Source: Kordiimonadaceae bacterium | GTDB lineage: Bacteria; Pseudomonadota; Alphaproteobacteria; Sphingomonadales; Kordiimonadaceae | Assembly: GCA_017640725.1 (NCBI GenBank) | Contig: JAEPQB010000001.1 | Span: 1,116,001-1,180,000 of the forward strand | Direction of reading: 5' to 3' | DNA: 64,000 bases | Part shown: positions 8,127 through 57,056 of the stretch, one piece after another | Numbering within the stretch: the first letter of the stretch is position 1 | How the letters are laid out: each line of letters begins with the position of its first letter | Notes under the pieces: generated by a model | What the model was told of the DNA's origin: nothing | The model's database searches: none | Seen by the model: only the letters and a program-made list of their open reading frames with translations | Translations under genes and position numbers: made by a program

Positions 8127-11100
8127 ATGATGCTCCCAATCGCGGCGCAAGAACTGCGCTATTTTCTGAAATCACCACAAGCCTTGGTGTCTTTCGTCAT
8201 CTTTTTCCTGCTGACTTTCTTTGCGATGATCAGCCCCAATATCACCATCGGTGGCGGCGGCAATGTGGACGTAAACTCTCCGTATGCCATCACGATGACT
8301 CTGCTGACACTCAATGTATTTGCCGTGTTTGTCATTCCAGCCTTCATGGCAAACGCCGTTCTCAAGGATTTTGACAGCAAGTTTGATGGAATTCTGTTTT
8401 CAACGCCGATGACCAAGCCAGACTATCTGTTTGGTCGCTTCATCGGTGCATTTGCCGCGATGAGCCTTGCGCTTGCCGGTGCCCCGCTTGGAATGCTGAT
8501 TGGCACACTTTGGCCAACGGTTGACCCTGAGACACTCTCGCCAACTAACATTTCGCACTATTTTTATGTCTACGGTGCGCTTGTGATGCCGGCGTCATTG
8601 ATCCTGAGCGCCATTATGTATGCCATTGCGATTAAAACACGATCGCTGATGTATACCTACATTGCGGCCAAGGGCCTTTTGATCCTTTACATCGTGACCC
8701 TCAATTTGTTGCAGGGACCGGAGTACCGCGAGATCAATGCGCTCCTGGACCCGTTTGCTTTCAGCACCTTTACTGAAATGACCCGATACTGGACGGCTGT
8801 TGAACGCAACACGACGCTCTTGTCCTATGAGGGCTATTTGCTCACCAACCGGCTGATCTGGCTTGGCGTCACAGTTGCGCTGGGTGCGCTTTCTTATGTG
8901 ATGTTCAGTTTCCGCACAGCGGCTAAAATGCCTAAGGAAAAGAAAGATCCGATGAAAGCTGTGCACGACTTGCTCGCTTCACAAGTTTCAGTTGGGAGTA
9001 AAGGAACACCTGTTTGGGGTAATCGCACAACCTTTGCGCAATTCTGGCTTCGAACAAGGTTTGAGGTCAAATCTGTGTTCACCAGTTTGCCATTTCTAAT
9101 CATTGTCAAGTTCAGCCTGTTCCTGACCATCACCGCGCTAATCCAGCGCAACGTGGGCTACGGGCTGGATGCGTACCCGGTGACGCGTTTGATGATTGAT
9201 GCGATCCGTGGCGGCTTTGGCCTTGCGCTTGTGGTCCTGCTGATTTTCTACAGCGCAGACATTATCTGGCGCGAGCGCGTCGCCAAATTCAATGAAATCA
9301 TTGATGCACTGCCGACACCCAACTGGGTTTATGTGGTCAGTAAACTGACGGCACTTGGCTTGGTGCTATTGTCGGTGCTGGTGCTAGGTATCTTTACCTC
9401 CATCACCATTCAGCTGTTGAGTGGCTATGACGCGCTTGAAGTCAGCCTGTATTTACACCGCGGTTTGGCGCACACGCTGCTGCCGTTCCTATTGGTGGCG
9501 GTTTTGTCTGCCTTCGTACAGGTGCTCTCAAACAACCGGTTTGTCGGCATGATGATCATGGTTCTGTACCTGATCTCTACCATTGTTCTGCAGGCCCTTG
9601 GGTTCGAGCATCCGCTTTATCGTTTTGCGAGCGATATCGACACCCCCATGTCGGACATGAATGGTTCTGGTCGTTTCATCGTGGGTGATTATTGGTTGAT
9701 TGCCTACTGGACCTTTGTTTCAGGCCTCTTGCTGATGCTCACATACATGCTGTGGAGCCGCGGCACCCTGCAGCCCCTCAAGCTGCGAATGCGGAACTTG
9801 CGGGCGTTTGCCCGGCCTCTCTCTGGTGCTGCTGCAGCCATCCTTCTGATGGGTGCTGTCGGCACGGGCGGCTTCATCTACTACAACACCAATATTCTGA
9901 ATGAATATATCACCGTGGATGACCTTGAAGAGCTGCAGGTGGAGTATGAGCAGACGTACCGCCAGTATGCGGACTTGCCCATGCCACGCACCACGGCGAT
10001 CAAAGTGGATGTGGACATCTTCCCATACCGTCGCCGTATTGAAGTGCGCTCCAACCAGGTTCTCCAGAACAAAACCGATGAGGCAATTTCAACGGTGCAT
10101 ATGGTGTTCCCACCACAGGCCGATGTTGTGGATGTGGCGCTGGAAGGCGCCACCCGCGAAACGTTCGACGAGCGTTTTAATTATCATATCTTTGAACTTG
10201 ATCGGCCAATGCTGCCGGGCGAAACCCGCACGCTGGGCTATGAAACACTTATCCAGCAACAGGGCTTTTCCCACGAACGCAACAGTGTGACGTTGGTTCG
10301 AAACGGCACATTCGTGAACAACAGCGAGTTTGCACCTTATATCGGTTTCTGGCCGGGCGGCATGATGGCGGACCGTAACACCCGCCGCGAGTATGGCCTT
10401 GAGCCATTGCCGCGCACGCCCAAGCTTGAGGACGCAAGCCAGTATGGCAACAACTATATCCGTCAGGACAGCGACTTCGTCACCTTCGAAACCACGGTTT
10501 CAACAGTTGAGGGTCAAACAGTTGTGGCTCCCGGTTACCTTGAGCGTGACTGGGTAGAAGACGGTCGGCACTATTTCGAATATTCAATGGATGCGCCGAT
10601 CCTGAACTTCTACAGCTACTTGTCTGCCGAGTATCAGGTGATCCGGGAAGAGTGGAATGATCTTCTGATTGAAGTGTTCCATCACGCCCCGCACACCTAC
10701 AATACGGGCCGTATGATCCAGGCGGTGAAGGATAGCATCAGCTATTTCAACACGGCCTTCAGCCCCTATCAGCATAAGCAGCTGAGGATTTTGGAGTTCC
10801 CGGCTTACCGCAACTTTGCGCAGGCTTTCCCGAACACTGTGCCCTATTCAGAAGGGATCGGCTTCATTGCTGATATTTCTGGCGAAGGCGTCATCGACAT
10901 GCCTTATTATGTCACCGCACATGAAGTGGCACACCAGTGGTGGGCGCACCAGGTAATGGCCGCCAATACGCAGGGCGGCACGATGCTGGTGGAAACGCTG
11001 GCGCAGTATGGCGCTCTGCTTGTAATGGAAAAGCAGTATGGCAAGGACCAGATCAGGAAATTCCTGAAGTTTGAGCTGGACCGCTATCTTGTGGGCCGCG

Positions 11101-11744
11101 CCACTGATCCGGAAGGGGAACTGCCGCTGTACCGCGTGGAAAACCAGCAATATATCCACTACCGCAAAGGCGCGGTCATCATGTATGCGCTCAAAGACTA
11201 TCTGGGTGAAGACGTGGTGAACCGCGCGCTCAGGCGGCTGATTGATCTGCGCGCTTTCCAGGGCAAGCCTTATGCAATTTCCACGGACTTCATCGCGTTC
11301 CTTAAGGAAGAAGCACCCGAGCATGTGGGCCTGATTGAGGACTTCTTTGAAAAGATCACGCTTTTCAACGTTTCAGCTGGTGGATCCAAAGTCGAACAAT
11401 TGGCTGATGGCACCTACAAAGTGACCATAGACGCTGAAGTTGCCAAGATTTACGCAGACGCGGAAGGCAATGAAACCACAGCAGACTTTGATATTCCGGT
11501 CGACATAGGCGTGTTTTCAAAAAACCCCGCTGACGACGACTTTAGCGCAGAGCATGTGCTGTATCTTGAGAAGCACACAGTGACAGAAGATGGCGCGATT
11601 GAGTTGATTGTTGACTATGAGCCTACCCATGTGGGCGTTGACCCCTACAACAAGCTCATTGATCGCAATTCAAATGATAATTTGCGCGCTGTGGATACGG
11701 TTGAATTGATCGCGTCAGCGGCCACTTCAGCCGGTTCCCGATAG
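8127..11744 (+). CDS. ABC-2 permease fused to M1-family aminopeptidase
   Basis: A 1205-residue fusion. The N-terminal ~600 residues hold two sets of ABC-2 type membrane helices separated by a cytoplasmic linker (about 265-310). The C-terminal half is an extracytoplasmic M1 metallopeptidase with the zinc motif HEVAHQWW (His932, His936) and the downstream Glu in LVETLAQY (Glu956). The upstream segment PNTVPYSEGIGF replaces the GAMEN exopeptidase motif, as I recall for other members of this fusion family. The pairing with the ATPase suggests export, or membrane extraction, coupled to peptide trimming. RBS AAGGAGA sits 6 bases before the ATG. A strong hairpin follows the stop. The architecture is known, but its substrate is not established as far as I know. 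Confidence 0.93.
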   Translation: MMLPIAAQELRYFLKSPQALVSFVIFFLLTFFAMISPNITIGGGGNVDVNSPYAITMTLLTLNVFAVFVIPAFMANAVLKDFDSKFDGILFSTPMTKPDYLFGRFIGAFAAMSLALAGAPLGMLIGTLWPTVDPETLSPTNISHYFYVYGALVMPASLILSAIMYAIAIKTRSLMYTYIAAKGLLILYIVTLNLLQGPEYREINALLDPFAFSTFTEMTRYWTAVERNTTLLSYEGYLLTNRLIWLGVTVALGALSYVMFSFRTAAKMPKEKKDPMKAVHDLLASQVSVGSKGTPVWGNRTTFAQFWLRTRFEVKSVFTSLPFLIIVKFSLFLTITALIQRNVGYGLDAYPVTRLMIDAIRGGFGLALVVLLIFYSADIIWRERVAKFNEIIDALPTPNWVYVVSKLTALGLVLLSVLVLGIFTSITIQLLSGYDALEVSLYLHRGLAHTLLPFLLVAVLSAFVQVLSNNRFVGMMIMVLYLISTIVLQALGFEHPLYRFASDIDTPMSDMNGSGRFIVGDYWLIAYWTFVSGLLLMLTYMLWSRGTLQPLKLRMRNLRAFARPLSGAAAAILLMGAVGTGGFIYYNTNILNEYITVDDLEELQVEYEQTYRQYADLPMPRTTAIKVDVDIFPYRRRIEVRSNQVLQNKTDEAISTVHMVFPPQADVVDVALEGATRETFDERFNYHIFELDRPMLPGETRTLGYETLIQQQGFSHERNSVTLVRNGTFVNNSEFAPYIGFWPGGMMADRNTRREYGLEPLPRTPKLEDASQYGNNYIRQDSDFVTFETTVSTVEGQTVVAPGYLERDWVEDGRHYFEYSMDAPILNFYSYLSAEYQVIREEWNDLLIEVFHHAPHTYNTGRMIQAVKDSISYFNTAFSPYQHKQLRILEFPAYRNFAQAFPNTVPYSEGIGFIADISGEGVIDMPYYVTAHEVAHQWWAHQVMAANTQGGTMLVETLAQYGALLVMEKQYGKDQIRKFLKFELDRYLVGRATDPEGELPLYRVENQQYIHYRKGAVIMYALKDYLGEDVVNRALRRLIDLRAFQGKPYAISTDFIAFLKEEAPEHVGLIEDFFEKITLFNVSAGGSKVEQLADGTYKVTIDAEVAKIYADAEGNETTADFDIPVDIGVFSKNPADDDFSAEHVLYLEKHTVTEDGAIELIVDYEPTHVGVDPYNKLIDRNSNDNLRAVDTVELIASAATSAGSR

Positions 11745-11759
11745 GGTTCCATCTCACAT

Positions 11760-11777
11760 TGGGGGGTTCGCCCCCCA
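11760..11777 (+). terminator. Hairpin terminator-like element after the ABC/peptidase operon
   Basis: TGGGGGG and CCCCCCA around a TTCG tetraloop, 15 bases after the stop codon. The stem is very stable, but the following GTTCTTCCC is only a weak U-tract. Confidence 0.55.
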
Positions 11778-11854
11778 GTTCTTCCCATTGATCACATTCA
11801 CTCGCATTGAAAGAACACCTGCGTTAGGGTGCGTGTTCAACATGAAACTAGTGA

Positions 11855-12778
11855 ATGATGATGTCAGGCCTTGTTCGACATTCAATAATTGCTTGCTTGC
11901 TACTGTGCGCAAGTACTACCGCAACTGCCGACACTGTGCCCTTCACTTTGGATGCCAGTGGCCGGCCGGTTATTCAGCTGACGTTTGACAATGAAACCAA
12001 ACAGTCTGCCGTGATTGACACTGCGGCCCGCCGGACCGCCATGAAGGAAACCGTGGCGTTTGCAGCAGGCGTAGAACGGCGAGGTCTCAACAATATTCGC
12101 CATGCCAGCGCCTACGGCACACTCAGGTTGCCACTTGGTTCGCTCGACAAACTAACTGTGTTCAACCGACGGTTTAAAGACAATGTTGTTGCATTGTATC
12201 CTGATCGTTCACCGCTTTATATCGGCGGTGAGACTACAGGCCTGGTCGGTTTTGATGTTATGCGTGGCCACGTATTCCGGTTTAACCCCACTTCAGGTGA
12301 AGTCGATGTATGGTCTCATAGCGCACAACTTGCCAATGACGGTTGGATGATTGTTCAAGGCCGCGCCAATCGCTCATGGGACCTGGTTCTTGAAACTGAG
12401 TTTCAAGGTGTTGATTTGACAATTCTGGTCGCCACAGGCAGCAGCCACACATTAGTTGACCTTGAAACTGCCAAGAAGATGTTCCCTGAAAAGACATTCA
12501 AAATGAATTTTGGGACATGGGATGTGCATCGGGGCCTTAGCACCAAACCTACCAATTTGGACACGCTTGAAATAGAGGGTTTCACCATCGGGCCGTGGGA
12601 CATCGGAAAAATTGAGGTGGGGGTAACGCGGCTCAGATTCGAGCCTGAAACACGGCTGAAGGGCAAAAACGTGATGGTTTTAGGATCCGATGTCTTGATG
12701 CGAGGTCCCATCGCATTCGATTACAGAAACCAAGCGGTTTGGGTGCCGAAGAACCACACAAACCAAACCAGCCGCTAG
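11855..12778 (+). CDS. Secreted retropepsin-like aspartic protease homologue, probably inactive
   Basis: A 307-residue protein with a signal peptide (residues 1-26, ending TATA). The layout is that of a two-lobed bacterial pepsin/retropepsin-like protein. The first lobe has AVIDTAARRT where active members have DTGA. The second has ILVATGSSHTLV where active members have DTGSS, so the second catalytic Asp appears replaced by Ala and the first Gly by Ala. It may be a binding or scaffold protein rather than a protease. Three ATG codons in tandem (11855, 11858, 11861) leave the exact start open, and no good Shine-Dalgarno is visible. The stop overlaps convergent hslO by 4 bases. Confidence 0.65.
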   Translation: MMMSGLVRHSIIACLLLCASTTATADTVPFTLDASGRPVIQLTFDNETKQSAVIDTAARRTAMKETVAFAAGVERRGLNNIRHASAYGTLRLPLGSLDKLTVFNRRFKDNVVALYPDRSPLYIGGETTGLVGFDVMRGHVFRFNPTSGEVDVWSHSAQLANDGWMIVQGRANRSWDLVLETEFQGVDLTILVATGSSHTLVDLETAKKMFPEKTFKMNFGTWDVHRGLSTKPTNLDTLEIEGFTIGPWDIGKIEVGVTRLRFEPETRLKGKNVMVLGSDVLMRGPIAFDYRNQAVWVPKNHTNQTSR

Positions 12779-25114: not shown

Positions 25115-26360
25115 TGCCGCCAAGCATATCAGCACGCCAGCACCGCTGGATGTGGCCGCGATCAAAGCGGACTTTCCCATTCTCTCGGAAACCGTGTACG
25201 GCAAGCCGCTGACGTTTCTGGATTCGGCGGCGAGCGCACAAAAGCCGCTGTCTGTTATCAATGCGGAAAAGGAACTGTTTGAGCATTATTATGCCAACAT
25301 CCACCGCGGTGTTTACAAATTCAGCCAGGACGCCACGGAAGCATATGAAGAAACCCGCAACACAGTGCAGACTTTCATCAATGCGCACCGGTCACGCGAG
25401 TGCATTTTTGTGCGCGGCGCAACTGAAGGCATCAATTTGGTTGCGCAGACCTGGGGCCGCTCGAATGTGAGCGAAGGTGACGAGATTATCCTTTCTGAGC
25501 TTGAGCATCATTCGAACATCGTTCCATGGCAGATGCTGGCGGAAGAAAAAGGCGCAAAGATCAAAGTCATTCCGCTCTTGGATGATGGCTCGGTGGATAT
25601 GGAGGTCTATGCCTCCCTGCTGACAGAGCGCACCAAATTGGTTGCAGTGGCACACATTTCAAACTCGATCGGCACCCATTTGCCGGTTGGTGAGATTATT
25701 CGCATGGCGCACGCGGCGGGCGCGAAAGTCCTATTGGATGGCTGCCAGGCTGCGCCGCATGAAGCGATTGATGTGCAGGCCCTCGACGTGGATTTCTACG
25801 CCTTCTCTGCCCACAAGGTATATGGCCCCACCGGCATTGGCGTGATTTACGGCAAGGAAGAACTGTTGGACGCAATGCCACCTTGGCAGGGCGGCGGTGA
25901 CATGATCTCGACCGTCACGTTTGAGAAAACTACCTATAATGACCTGCCGCACAAGTTTGAGGCGGGCACGCCAAACATCTCTGGTGGCATTGCAATGAAG
26001 CATGCGCTTGACTATGTAAGCGCGATTGGTTTTGACCGCATTGCGGCGCATGAAGCGGATCTGCGCGATTATGCGTCAGAGCAACTCGTGGGCTCCAATA
26101 GCGTACGGCTGATTGGAACGGCTGAGGGCAAGGGCGCGATCATCAGTTTTGTGATGGAAAGCGCGCACCCGCATGATATCGGCACGATCCTCGATCGTCA
26201 GGGTATCGCAGTTCGGGCCGGCCACCACTGTGCCCAACCCGTGATGGACCGATTTGGTATTCCCGGGACTGTGCGCGCCAGCTTTGGTATATATAATGAC
26301 CGCAGCGATGTGGACCGGTTGATTGAAGGCCTGAAAAAGGTAGTGGATATTTTTGGATGA
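25107..26360 (+). CDS. sufS: Cysteine desulfurase SufS
   Basis: PLP enzyme that takes sulfur from cysteine for cluster assembly; 417 residues. PLP features include GATEGIN (104-110), HHSNIVPW (from 134) and the Schiff-base Lys237 in SAHKVYGPTG. The persulfide cysteine is Cys375 in RAGHHCAQP, the group II type. The ATG at 25107 overlaps sufD by 8 bases. Upstream in-frame starts would run inside sufD. No sufE or sufU partner is in the window, so the sulfur shuttle must lie elsewhere or be bypassed. Confidence 0.97.
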   Translation: MTNAAKHISTPAPLDVAAIKADFPILSETVYGKPLTFLDSAASAQKPLSVINAEKELFEHYYANIHRGVYKFSQDATEAYEETRNTVQTFINAHRSRECIFVRGATEGINLVAQTWGRSNVSEGDEIILSELEHHSNIVPWQMLAEEKGAKIKVIPLLDDGSVDMEVYASLLTERTKLVAVAHISNSIGTHLPVGEIIRMAHAAGAKVLLDGCQAAPHEAIDVQALDVDFYAFSAHKVYGPTGIGVIYGKEELLDAMPPWQGGGDMISTVTFEKTTYNDLPHKFEAGTPNISGGIAMKHALDYVSAIGFDRIAAHEADLRDYASEQLVGSNSVRLIGTAEGKGAIISFVMESAHPHDIGTILDRQGIAVRAGHHCAQPVMDRFGIPGTVRASFGIYNDRSDVDRLIEGLKKVVDIFG

Positions 26361-26869
26361 CGAGCGAAGCAAAAAGAGATGTGCTGGACGTGAGCACTCC
26401 CCAAACGCCCAACGATGTTCCGGATGAAAACAAGCCGGTGACAGCAGAGCGCCCTGTGGTAAGCCCGCAGGAAGGGGCCTATTTCCTGGACAAATTCCTG
26501 GCTGAGAAGGACGAGCCAGCCGAAGACGCTGCGCCCGCTGAAGCGCAAGCTGCGCCCGCGACCAAAGAAGAGCTGCAGGCCAACATCGTTGCCGCCCTTC
26601 AGGAAATTTATGACCCGGAAATTCCGGTAAACATCTATGAGCTGGGCCTGATTTACGGTGTGGATGTGGCGGAAGATTTTTCGGCCTATGTCACCATGAC
26701 TTTAACCACGCCGCACTGTCCGGTGGCCGAAAGCATGCCGGGTGAAGTGGAGCTTAAGGTCGCGTCTGTGGCCGGCGTGAACGGTGTGACAGTTGACCTT
26801 GTTTGGGACCCACCGTGGGACATGTCCAAAATGTCGGACGAAGCCCGGTTGGAACTCGGTCTTTTATAA
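26357..26869 (+). CDS. sufT: SUF-associated DUF59/MIP18 protein (SufT-like)
   Basis: A 170-residue protein with an acidic, Ala/Pro/Glu-rich N-terminal tail of about 70 residues and a C-terminal MIP18/DUF59 domain: EIYDPEIPVNIYELGLIYG, TTPHCPVAESMP and VDLVWDPPWDMSKMS. Such proteins help mature Fe-S proteins and are common in alphaproteobacterial suf operons. The start overlaps sufS by 4 bases (ATGA). The long tail is unusual for bacterial SufT and may be a flexible linker. Confidence 0.92.
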   Translation: MTSEAKRDVLDVSTPQTPNDVPDENKPVTAERPVVSPQEGAYFLDKFLAEKDEPAEDAAPAEAQAAPATKEELQANIVAALQEIYDPEIPVNIYELGLIYGVDVAEDFSAYVTMTLTTPHCPVAESMPGEVELKVASVAGVNGVTVDLVWDPPWDMSKMSDEARLELGLL

Positions 26870-26878
26870 TTAACGGCA

Positions 26879-26947
26879 CCGGCCCTCACCCCCACCCGAC
26901 CACCCAAGTATAATTCCGTGCGGTGGTCGGGTGGGGGTGAGGGCTGG
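26879..26947. repeat. Dispersed palindromic (REP-like) element, copy 1, inside the suf operon
   Basis: Perfect 22-bp inverted arms (26883-26904 and 26922-26943) around a 17-base loop, with the outer bases 26879-26882 also mostly paired. A second, degenerate copy lies at 55410-55475 in the opposite orientation and matches about 60 of 66 positions. Here it sits between sufT and sufA. There is no T-run, but the stem could slow polymerase or protect upstream mRNA. Confidence 0.85.
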
Positions 26948-26975
26948 AGCAGAACTCCAGACTTGGAGAAAGAAA

Positions 26976-27302
26976 ATGACAGCTATTCAGATTACTGACA
27001 CAGCGGCTGAGCATATCAAGGCGCTCTTGTCCAAAAACGTTGACGCGATCGGCATCAAGCTGGGCACCGAAACCCATGGCTGTTCTGGCATGGGCTATAC
27101 GGTTGATTATGTCACCGAAGAAGACGCCGAGTGCGAACTTGTGGAAGACAAGGGCGTGAAAGTGTTTGTGGACCGCAAGTCTTTGCTGTTTCTGTTGGGC
27201 ACCCAGATGGACTGGGAAGACAGCATGTTTTCAACGGGGTTTAAATTCACCAACCCCAATGAAAAAGGCCGCTGCGGTTGCGGTGAAAGCTTCCACGTTT
27301 AG
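26976..27302 (+). CDS. sufA: A-type Fe-S carrier SufA/IscA
   Basis: Fe-S cluster carrier, 108 residues, HesB/IscA family. The three ligating cysteines are Cys36 (THGCSGMGY), Cys100 and Cys102 (GRCGCGESF). The ATG at 26976 is preceded by GGAGAAAG; an in-frame GTG at 26931 would start inside the palindromic repeat. It is the last gene of the suf operon, separated from sufT by 106 bases holding the palindrome, which may set it apart transcriptionally. Confidence 0.95.
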   Translation: MTAIQITDTAAEHIKALLSKNVDAIGIKLGTETHGCSGMGYTVDYVTEEDAECELVEDKGVKVFVDRKSLLFLLGTQMDWEDSMFSTGFKFTNPNEKGRCGCGESFHV

Positions 27303-55054: not shown

Positions 55055-55252
55055 TTAGCCGTAGGGCATGAACTTCTTGATGATGGTAGCATCAGCATCA
55101 CAAAGGATGGTTGTGCCACGCTGGTTACGGATTTGCTTGTTGGTGCGCTTGATCATGCCGTGCTGTTTGCCAGCCTGAGCAGAACGGACCTTACCAGAAG
55201 CAGTGAGCTTGAAGCGTTTTTTAACGCTCGACTTAGTCTTCATCTTGGGCAT
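55055..55252 (-). CDS. rpmI: 50S ribosomal protein L35
   Basis: A 65-residue L35: [20 protein letters not shown] is the canonical start and KKFMPYG the usual end. It precedes rplT. In many bacteria infC lies upstream; here the upstream neighbour is a 5'-nucleotidase, so infC is elsewhere. The promoter lies about 86 bases upstream. Confidence 0.98.
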
Positions 55253-55366: not shown

Positions 55367-55409
55367 GCAGATTCAGCAGGAAAATTTGGGTCGGTTTTTA
55401 GGGCTGTTC

Positions 55410-55475
55410 CAGCCCACACCCCCACCCGGCCACCGCACGGAATTATACTTGGGTAGTCGGGTGGGGTTGCGGGCT
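55410..55475. repeat. Dispersed palindromic (REP-like) element, copy 2
   Basis: Matches the reverse complement of 26881-26946 at about 60 of 66 positions, including the loop (GCACGGAATTATACTTG) unchanged. The stem has degenerated: several of the differences break pairs. It lies 22 bases downstream of the 5'-nucleotidase stop, between that gene and the rpmI promoter. Confidence 0.85.
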
Positions 55476-55496
55476 GGTGCCGCTAGCTAAAAATTA

Positions 55497-57056
55497 CTAC
55501 TCCGGCGTTAAATCCCGCTGCCTGCCAACGGCCGGTGCGCGGACCATTTCGCGGCTTGAGAAATACTCTAGAAGGATTTCTGAAATCAGGCCCGCGTTGC
55601 CGGTTTTTTCAACTTCCGTGAAGGTGGTGAACAGGTCGGCGCCGTTGGCGATGATCGTTGGCGCGCCCACGGTGAACTCGTCCTCGGGCTCAATGGGTTT
55701 ACCATCTTTGGTGAGCGTCAGCACCCGGCTGTACTCCGGCTTTGAGAGATCATAAGTGACCTCAAGACCCGAGACTTCCAGAAGCCCGCGCTCAAAAGTC
55801 AGCGACTGTTCTATGAGGTCGCGCAGTTGCCGGCCGTTCAAAGTCATCGTCAGCACATGGTCGATGAAGGGATACACATCGAGCACATCCACGCGCCGGA
55901 TCGGACCTGCAGGCAGGTCTTTCCTAAGGCTGCCCGGATGAATGAAAGCGATGTCCGTGCCGCCTGCTTCACGGAAGATGTCGGCAAACAGGTTCCCAAG
56001 GGTCGATTCGCGCACATATTTACGGTTCATATAACTGTCTGACGCACCAATCACTTCAAACAGGTCAGGGGCAGCCGCCCGCGCCGCCTCAATACGTGCC
56101 CTGACAACAGGGTCCGGGGCATAGCGGTCAGCATCTACCGGGATAAGCTTGCCGTCATAGCCCATGATGCGGCCGGTTTCATCGTCCAGGATCAGCTCCA
56201 GGAAACCCAGGTGCGTCGCCTGCCCGTAAGTTTGCATAATCAGCGTGCCGGTTTCCGGGTGGACAACCGGCTCTGGCGTGCCCGCATCCGCATGACCGCC
56301 AAACAGCACATCCACGCCCGTTACCGCGCCTGCAAGGGCGATGTCGGCGTCAATGTCGCGCTGGGTCATTGGGTCGGTTTCGGCGTCCGTCTGCATCGGA
56401 GCTGTTTTCCCCATGTGGGTGAGAAGCACCACCAAATCAACTTCATCGCGGATCGCATCAACGGATTTCTGGACTGCAGCAGCCTCTTCGGTCACATCCA
56501 GGGGCGCGATGAACGCCGGGATGATCGCGGATACGGCGTCCCGGCCCATGATGCCAACAACGCCGATGCGCACGCCGTCGCGCTCAATGATCGTATGCGC
56601 CTGCGCAAACGGATGGTCAGTATCCTTGTAAAAGAAATTGGCGCCCAGGACCGGGAAAGGCGCACGGTTTTTCTGCCAGCCGAAAATTTCGACGCCATAT
56701 TCGAATTCATGATTGCCGATCGCGAGCGCGTCATAACCCATCAGCGCCATCAGGTCGAACGCCAGCGCGCCCTGCGTTTCCTTGGCGAGCGCACCGGTGA
56801 AAATATCCCCCGAGTCGAACAAAAACGTGCGGGAGTTTTTGGCGCGCAGCTCGTTAATGAGCGTGGTCATCTCCGCTATGCCGCCGATTCGCTCCAGATC
56901 ATCAAGCCAAAAGGCCGGGATGGGGTCATAGGCGCTTTCCACATCATTGGTGAACAGGAGCGTGACCTTCTTGTCACCTGCCCCCGCAGAATAGGCCAGT
57001 GCGATAATTGCAATCGCGAAAACGCCTGCGCGACCCAGTATTTTGCTGATGCCCAT
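55497..57056 (-). CDS. Periplasmic bifunctional metallophosphatase/5'-nucleotidase
   Basis: A 519-residue UshA-like enzyme that hydrolyses nucleotides or other phosphomonoesters. It has a signal peptide (about 1-27), the metallophosphatase domain with TND, FDSGDIFTG, GNHEFEYG and HADAGTPE metal-binding motifs, and the C-terminal 5'-nucleotidase domain (SYMNRKYVRESTLGNLFADI). The palindromic repeat lies downstream of its stop. It may serve phosphate scavenging, though no Pho box was seen in its leader. Confidence 0.92.
   Translation of the reverse strand: MGISKILGRAGVFAIAIIALAYSAGAGDKKVTLLFTNDVESAYDPIPAFWLDDLERIGGIAEMTTLINELRAKNSRTFLFDSGDIFTGALAKETQGALAFDLMALMGYDALAIGNHEFEYGVEIFGWQKNRAPFPVLGANFFYKDTDHPFAQAHTIIERDGVRIGVVGIMGRDAVSAIIPAFIAPLDVTEEAAAVQKSVDAIRDEVDLVVLLTHMGKTAPMQTDAETDPMTQRDIDADIALAGAVTGVDVLFGGHADAGTPEPVVHPETGTLIMQTYGQATHLGFLELILDDETGRIMGYDGKLIPVDADRYAPDPVVRARIEAARAAAPDLFEVIGASDSYMNRKYVRESTLGNLFADIFREAGGTDIAFIHPGSLRKDLPAGPIRRVDVLDVYPFIDHVLTMTLNGRQLRDLIEQSLTFERGLLEVSGLEVTYDLSKPEYSRVLTLTKDGKPIEPEDEFTVGAPTIIANGADLFTTFTEVEKTGNAGLISEILLEYFSSREMVRAPAVGRQRDLTPE

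What the first reader, a model, noticed from the sequence alone, without database searches (positions are those of the whole stretch)
26879..26947. Dispersed palindromic element with two copies in the window
The 66-bp element at 26881-26946 and the one at 55410-55475 are reverse complements with about 60 of 66 positions matching, including an identical 17-base loop. Copy 1 has a perfect 22-bp stem; copy 2 has lost several pairs. Two copies in 64 kb implies a genome-wide family, like REP/BIME or MITE elements, possibly mobilised by a transposase (for example a RAYT) encoded elsewhere. I do not recognise this sequence as a described family.
Basis: seen in the sequence. Interest (0 to 1): 0.7.

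Follow-up and report, generated by a model that had tools for sequence, protein, structure and literature searches.

The report
Stop-codon-hugging mobile DNA hairpin family
The two hairpins in this stretch belong to a family of tiny jumping DNA palindromes found in a number of alphaproteobacteria; they carry no gene of their own, tend to sit just behind the stop codons of genes, and in one relative their ends match those of a known class of transposon.

Summary
In detail: 60 of 66 positions match, the 17-nt loop is identical, the copy-1 stem is 23 bp. The genome holds 11 copies and a fragment. Copy 1 is absent from 16 of 16 readable loci of other species of the genus; eight other sites are empty at 22 of 22 readable loci in three relatives. 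One older insertion is shared by 3 of 18 readable species, with paired stem changes. The hairpin model matches 24 of 289 sampled alphaproteobacterial genomes. In one relative, G061, elements have 17-bp inverted ends and TNA duplications, equal in 11 of 17, or 10 of 16 without a duplicate locus; in 7 of 17 the neighbouring stop codon is the target triplet. A 903-bp IS5-family element on a Roseomonas plasmid has such ends and a TCA/TCA duplication. No RAYT-type gene was found in the window's genome. Best reading: MITE-like mobile DNA palindromes, undescribed in the searches made. The Kordiimonas mobiliser is unknown; clean ends were not seen there.

The parts
26870..26964 (+). Copy 1, approximate extent of the insertion: segment between the sufT-like stop codon (TAA 26867-26869) and the GGAG before the next gene; exact ends not resolved
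   Evidence: No hairpin at 16 of 16 readable orthologous loci of other genomes of the genus, where stop codon and next gene lie close together
26876..26904 (+). Copy 1, 5' (C-rich) arm
   Evidence: the repeat finder I2; innermost 23 pairs perfect
26905..26921 (+). Copy 1, 17-nt loop
   Evidence: identical in copy 2; similar loops in relatives
26922..26950 (+). Copy 1, 3' (G-rich) arm
55404..55493 (-). Copy 2, inverted relative to copy 1, 88% over 90 nt
   Evidence: (93% over the matched part)
55435..55451 (-). Copy 2 loop, identical to copy 1
55398..55400 (.). Left TTA, candidate half of a 3-bp TNA-type target duplication of copy 2
   Evidence: G005, G013 and G018 each have one TTTTTTA stretch at this place; suggestive only
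55494..55496 (.). Right TTA, candidate second half of the duplication; reads TAA on the - strand, directly behind the present TAG stop (55497-55499)
   Evidence: suggestive only
26357..26869 (+). Host gene before copy 1: Fe-S assembly protein, SufT-like (PF01883; the name SufT is recalled)
26976..27302 (+). Host gene after copy 1: Fe-S biosynthesis protein, IscA/SufA-like (PF01521; the name is recalled)
55497..57056 (-). Host gene before copy 2: 5'-nucleotidase-like protein (PF02872, PF00149)
55055..55252 (-). Host gene after copy 2: 65-aa protein read as ribosomal protein L35 (rpmI) from recall
   Evidence: ORF only

Best explanation
The feature is a copy of a non-autonomous, MITE-like mobile palindrome family of Alphaproteobacteria. 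SHOWN: it is dispersed, is present or absent at orthologous sites, lies between genes and preferentially close behind stop codons, and its stem is kept by paired changes. SHOWN IN ONE RELATIVE (G061): whole elements have 17-bp terminal inverted repeats and mostly a 3-bp TNA duplication, in 7 of 17 cases at a stop codon; there the duplication leaves the gene with its stop codon, so the insertion should do little harm. An IS5-family element with matching ends and a TNA-type duplication lies on a Roseomonas plasmid. INFERRED: the elements are moved in trans by a DDE transposase of the IS5 family (IS1031-like, TNA target), and the Kordiimonas copies, whose ends are shorter and diverged, were moved in the same way by a transposase since lost or not recognised. 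INFERRED: the central hairpin works at the DNA level (folded single strand or cruciform during transposition or replication); where it lies within about 15 nt of a stop codon it may also act on the mRNA, for instance by stalling ribosomes.
For: Copies: 11 plus a fragment. Presence/absence: copy 1 absent at 16 of 16 readable loci; eight further sites, copy 2 among them, empty at 22 of 22 readable loci in G005, G013, G018; one site occupied in 3 of 18 readable genomes. Paired changes: A1 score 0.195 against 0.097 shuffled and at most 0.049 slid; A2 0.208 against 0.085 and at most 0.065. Position: stop nearer than start in 50 of the 68 codirectional cases used (of 71), medians 26.5 and 91 nt; 8 of 11 G000 copies within 15 nt of a stop. 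G061: 34 end matches form 17 inverted pairs; triplets equal in 11 of 17, shuffle mean 4.7, 0 of 5000 as high; stop codon at the edge in 7 of 17; L287 and L297 are the same sequence, so 10 of 16 and 6 of 16 counted once. All 15 longer elements carry both hairpin arms. IS: 903 bp, ends alike at 18 of 20 positions, TCA/TCA; transposase NF033580, 238 bits. DNA level: 34 G-U against 39 A-C, orientation 17 against 12. IS1031 group and TNA: passage of PMC12016507. Ribosome stalling by REPs within 15 nt of a stop: passages of PMC12306157.
Against: No relative of the Roseomonas transposase at E 1e-5 in G000, G005, G013 or G035, no PF13340 in G000, G005 or G035. Its nearest full-length relatives (47%, three copies) are in G027, which has no element match. 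No IS-sized pair of the G061 ends exists in G061, and its DUF4096 transposase loci show no end match with fewer than 4 mismatches in 15; other transposase families were not searched there. The plasmid hit that led to the Roseomonas IS was weak as a hit (E 3). The Kordiimonas copies show no clean terminal repeats; only copy 2 shows a possible TNA duplication, copy 1 none. Outer ends differ between genomes while the hairpin is conserved (by eye), the reverse of a simple MITE. 6 of 17 G061 elements have unequal triplets. Paired changes can also come from templated correction of quasi-palindromes (recalled).
Confidence: 0.66

Rival explanations
1. A REP/BIME-type family spread by a RAYT (Y1 transposase).
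For: Dispersed, extragenic, palindromic, close behind stop codons.
Against: No PF01797 match in G000; no association among relatives (4 of 14 bearing, 7 of 26 not bearing). No GTAG, GTGG or CGTC within 10 nt of the foot in 22 G000 flanks. Core far longer than the 20-40 bp given for REPs (abstract of PMC3733652). G061 copies have inverted ends and 3-bp duplications.
Confidence: 0.07
2. A host-level functional site (transcript-end hairpin, translation brake or protein-binding site) that selection keeps in place, with mobility secondary.
For: Stem kept by paired changes, also in place at one site shared by three species; position close behind stop codons; hairpins within 15 nt of a stop can lower translation in E. 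coli (PMC12306157 passages).
Against: 9 of 10 testable G000 sites are empty in the relatives read. No G-U bias and no orientation bias. Patchy: 24 of 289 genomes. No T run behind the hairpin on the strand of the gene before it at copies 1 and 2.
Confidence: 0.15
3. The central hairpin is its own mobile or hitchhiking module that joins different small transposon ends, rather than the interior of one MITE lineage.
For: Hairpin conserved in several alphaproteobacterial groups while ends differ by genome (by eye); in G061 two 46-bp elements have the same ends without the hairpin, and GAGAATG flanks the hairpin-bearing block in many of the longer ones (read).
Against: The 46-bp forms can equally be deletions between the two GAGAATG copies (recalled as a known fate of palindromes). 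No enzyme for such a module was found.
Confidence: 0.12

Closest known systems
MITEs mobilised by IS5-family (IS1031-type) transposases
   Same: Short, no gene, inverted ends and mostly 3-bp TNA duplications in G061; an IS5-family element with matching ends in Roseomonas; TNA preference as described for the IS1031 group (PMC12016507 passage)
   Different: Interior is a long conserved hairpin with a conserved loop; ends vary between genomes; in Kordiimonas ends are unclear and no partner transposase was found
REP/BIME elements with RAYT
   Same: Dispersed, extragenic, palindromic, near stop codons
   Different: 66-90 bp core, 17-nt loop, no GTAG/CGTC tag, no PF01797 match in this genome
QMITE2 of Coxiella and its alphaproteobacterial relatives (PMC5896051, passages only)
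   Same: Palindromic MITE mainly in 3' untranslated and intergenic regions, stem partly conserved in distant taxa
   Different: 7-11 nt duplications and a GTAG REP inside, relatives named in Bradyrhizobium, Rhodobacter and Rhodopseudomonas; its sequence was not compared here
RIME/ABC elements of rhizobia, Correia/NEMIS, ERIC (recalled, from no call)
   Same: Short intergenic palindromic elements
   Different: Sequences not compared here

Membership tests
REP with RAYT | Y1 (RAYT) transposase in the genome | tested here: not met
   PF01797: 0 matches in G000
REP with RAYT | GTAG or CGTC tag at the hairpin foot | tested here: not met
   0 of 22 G000 flanks, 10 nt each, both strands, GTGG also tried; definition from PMC3733652 passages
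REP with RAYT | 20-40 bp unit | tested here: not met
   Core 66-90 bp
MITE | Short element without coding capacity | tested here: met
   G061: 15 of 140-178 bp and two of 46 bp; copies 1 and 2 about 90-95 bp
MITE | Terminal inverted repeats | tested here: inconclusive
   Met in G061 (34 matches, 17 inverted pairs); not clear for the Kordiimonas copies
MITE | Target-site duplication | tested here: inconclusive
   G061: triplets equal in 11 of 17; copy 2 TTA/TTA suggestive, copy 1 none seen
MITE | Presence/absence at orthologous sites | tested here: met
MITE | Autonomous partner with the same ends | tested here: inconclusive
   Roseomonas plasmid IS has G061-like ends; none found in G061 or in the Kordiimonas genomes searched
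Known Rfam RNA family | Match at the gathering score | tested here: not met
   0 matches in the window; 49 sub-threshold matches at the element, most to microRNA models, best E 8.1e-7 at 39.6 of 77 bits required
Intrinsic terminator | Run of T directly behind the hairpin on the strand of the gene before it | tested here: not met
   Copies 1 and 2 read by eye

The most novel reading that the evidence does not exclude
A DNA hairpin module conserved in several orders of Alphaproteobacteria that rides on different transposon ends, is kept by recognition of its folded form, and inserts at stop codons so that the target duplication restores the host gene's stop codon.
Probability: 0.22. Interest if true: 0.72.

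Novelty: new variant of a known kind. Interest (0 to 1): 0.5.

Why it matters
If right, it names a widespread mobile palindrome family that the searches made here did not find described, gives it a probable class of transposase, and shows how TNA targeting lets insertions use stop codons with little damage. It also offers a natural test of whether hairpins a few bases behind a stop codon change expression of the gene before them.

Tried and rejected
RAYT link: not supported. RNA-family reading: no Rfam match at gathering scores (sub-threshold matches), no G-U bias. Terminator reading: no T run behind copies 1 and 2. Phages: no match in 50,697 records. Plasmids: 4 of 72,556 records, one a partial Streptomyces match. 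Viral contigs: 0 stretches with one exact pattern. DUF4096 transposases of G061 as partners: no such ends at their loci. A first gene calling by longest ORFs was too noisy in GC-rich loci and was replaced by a codon-scored caller of my own; 3 of 158 copies were then called inside genes, perhaps wrongly. Rows dropped: L149 and L212 as duplicates of L078 and L046; L192, with an 11-nt loop, as likely chance (from A2 and from then on); L176 from A2. Of 110 prepared references 75 went into A2, with 15 others. One G000 site (L011) could not be found in relatives. Of seven plasmid records hit by the ends alone I looked at four: three lie beside annotated transposase genes, the Methylocystis one does not. 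Papers: searches found no description; the search for six arm strings gave 0 papers; the library is open-access only. Seen as found passages: PMC3733652, PMC12306157, PMC12016507, PMC7031236 (nothing used), PMC5896051; others as search listings.

Full report
OBSERVATION. The pair is real: 60 of 66 positions match between 26881-26946 and the reverse complement of 55410-55475, with an identical 17-nt loop; the copy-1 stem has 23 perfect pairs, copy 2 keeps 23 of 30 in its best register. Similarity runs over 90 nt at 88%. Both fold far better than shuffles (z -9.5 to -5.6, 0 of 200 in each fold).

GENOME AND RELATIVES. The window's genome (G000, 4.04 Mb, 14 contigs) has 11 copies and one fragment. 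Of 40 genomes searched (own included) 14 match, 11 of them among the 19 of the same genus; the G037 match is only 24 nt. The genus is taken as Kordiimonas because contig 5 of G005 (same genus) and record CANMRM010000005.1, titled uncultured Kordiimonas, have the same length, 387,728 bases. Titles were shown for 80; 79 name Alphaproteobacteria (Sphingomonadales, Kordiimonadales, Acetobacteraceae, Rhodospirillales, Minwuia and others), one names Bacillus, possibly a labelling or contamination problem, not tested. Of 123 matches in these loci 121 have loops of 16-23 nt, one 30 and one 11. A covariance model matches 24 of 289 sampled genomes of the class, G000 included, at E 0.001 or better; only 16 candidates per genome were scored, so this gives no copy numbers.

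STEM AND LOOP. In 37 relatives picked by whole-element similarity 91.3% of stem cells pair, 15 of 30 pairs show changes on both sides (shuffle mean 8.2), and the covariation score is 0.195 against 0.097 shuffled and at most 0.049 slid. In 90 wider sequences the figures are 93.5%, 17 of 32 (10.4), and 0.208 against 0.085 and 0.065; 75 of these 90 were found with a pattern demanding perfect inner arms, so those positions are biased. In 70 codirectional copies imperfect sense-strand pairs are 34 G-U, 39 A-C and 74 other, and loop orientation relative to the nearest stop is 17 against 12. Selection on a sense RNA should favour G-U; this fits a DNA-level constraint, or templated correction of quasi-palindromes, which can also give paired changes (recalled).

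MOBILITY. For sufT, 18 of 19 genus genomes gave the gene; G000 has the insertion, 16 readable others do not, one locus is cut off. At eight other sites, copy 2 among them, 22 of 22 readable loci in G005, G013 and G018 show no hairpin beside the gene; for two sites one relative was missing, and a ninth site was not found at all. At one site, between an acyl-CoA dehydrogenase-like and a CaiB-like gene (names recalled), G000, G005 and G013 share the element 10 nt behind the stop codon; 15 readable genomes lack it, one is cut off. The three shared copies differ by paired changes: T-A to A-T at two stem positions, C-G to G-C at one (rows L003, L042, L072). So 9 of 10 testable G000 insertions are absent from the relatives read, and an older one keeps its stem.

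POSITION. With a codon-scored gene caller of my own, 155 of 158 copies lie outside called genes. After dropping two duplicate loci, of 126 with both neighbours 71 are codirectional, 35 convergent and 20 divergent; element-free gaps of 30 nt or more in the same loci are 280, 46 and 106. In 50 of the 68 codirectional cases used (of 71) the stop is nearer than the start (medians 26.5 and 91 nt; Wilcoxon p 2.6e-5). In G000 8 of 11 copies lie within 15 nt of a stop codon. The caller is approximate and the cases were chosen by sequence.

WHOLE ELEMENT IN A RELATIVE. In G061 (4.62 Mb, one contig) 34 matches to a 17-nt end form 17 inverted pairs: 15 of 140-178 bp and two of 46 bp. The 15 longer ones carry both hairpin arms, the two short ones do not. 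Flanking triplets are mostly of the form TNA and equal in 11 of 17 (shuffle mean 4.7; 0 of 5000 as high). In 7 of 17 the triplet at the edge is the neighbouring gene's stop codon (one of these gene calls is weak). L287 and L297 are identical over all shared sequence and lie near the two contig ends; counted once, the figures are 10 of 16 and 6 of 16. A query of the ends alone hit 7 plasmid records with weak E-values (0.02 to 3); of four looked at, three lie beside annotated transposase genes. In Roseomonas marmotae p1318-7 a 903-bp IS has such ends and a TCA/TCA duplication; its transposase matches NF033580. The Acidisoma record has such ends on both sides of an IS5-family transposase, with unequal triplets; in the Polymorphobacter record the nearest inverted second end (2 mismatches in 15) is about 1.65 kb away, in the Methylocystis record only one with 4 mismatches was seen. 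IS1031-group elements prefer TNA and make 3-bp repeats (PMC12016507, passage). In 289 flanks that do not include G061, TCAAAC lies within 55 nt of the core in 24 and at 200-255 nt in 1, so the inner part of these ends is shared beyond G061, though by a minority of flanks.

LIMITS. The Kordiimonas copies lack clean terminal repeats, and no relative of the Roseomonas transposase was found in G000, G005, G013 or G035; in that search 12 of 40 genomes matched, and the best matches are in G027, which has no element match. Copy 2 has TTA on both sides where three relatives have one TTTTTTA stretch: this fits a TNA duplication at the old stop codon but proves nothing; copy 1 shows none. Ends differ between G061, G202, G193 and G319 while the hairpin is conserved (by eye); this is the main unexplained point.

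VERDICT. Ordinary in kind (MITE-like palindrome), new in detail: a conserved hairpin core, use of stop codons as target, and an IS5-type candidate partner for one lineage. The searches for a description found none, in an open-access library only.

Noticed in passing
L021:1501-1540, L048:1501-1553, L055:1499-1530, L073:2055-2105: A variant of the hairpin in which one arm carries TTGGCCAAAGC-type sequence instead of the usual arm, in four genomes of the genus; L048 and L055 share a neighbouring gene (68% identical proteins), no link was found for the others.
   Followed up: partly
L303, L304 (G061:C1:2764965-2765010 and 4498999-4499044): Two 46-bp palindromes made only of the element ends, one with a TCA/TCA duplication: minimal mobile units or deletions of the hairpin.
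   Followed up: partly
G000:C7:707039 (L021) and 709062 (L007): A gene that I read as typA/bipA (recalled) seems to be flanked by the fragment and a full copy about 2 kb apart.
   Followed up: no
L226, L307 (G319): A half-hairpin followed by a GGTTTG-type stretch lies directly beside a full copy.
   Followed up: no
L102, L110, L183: Another short palindrome (CCCCACAAAGTA / CCCCGCAAAGTA type) lies inside or at an arm of the hairpin.
   Followed up: no
L143 (RPSH01000012.1): A contig titled Bacillus sp. 2B10 carries this element, otherwise seen in Alphaproteobacteria; possibly mislabelled or contaminated.
   Followed up: no
G061:C1 about 10900-12500 and 4604200-4605700 (L287, L297): Identical sequence near both ends of the contig, perhaps an unmerged overlap of a circular chromosome.
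   Followed up: partly
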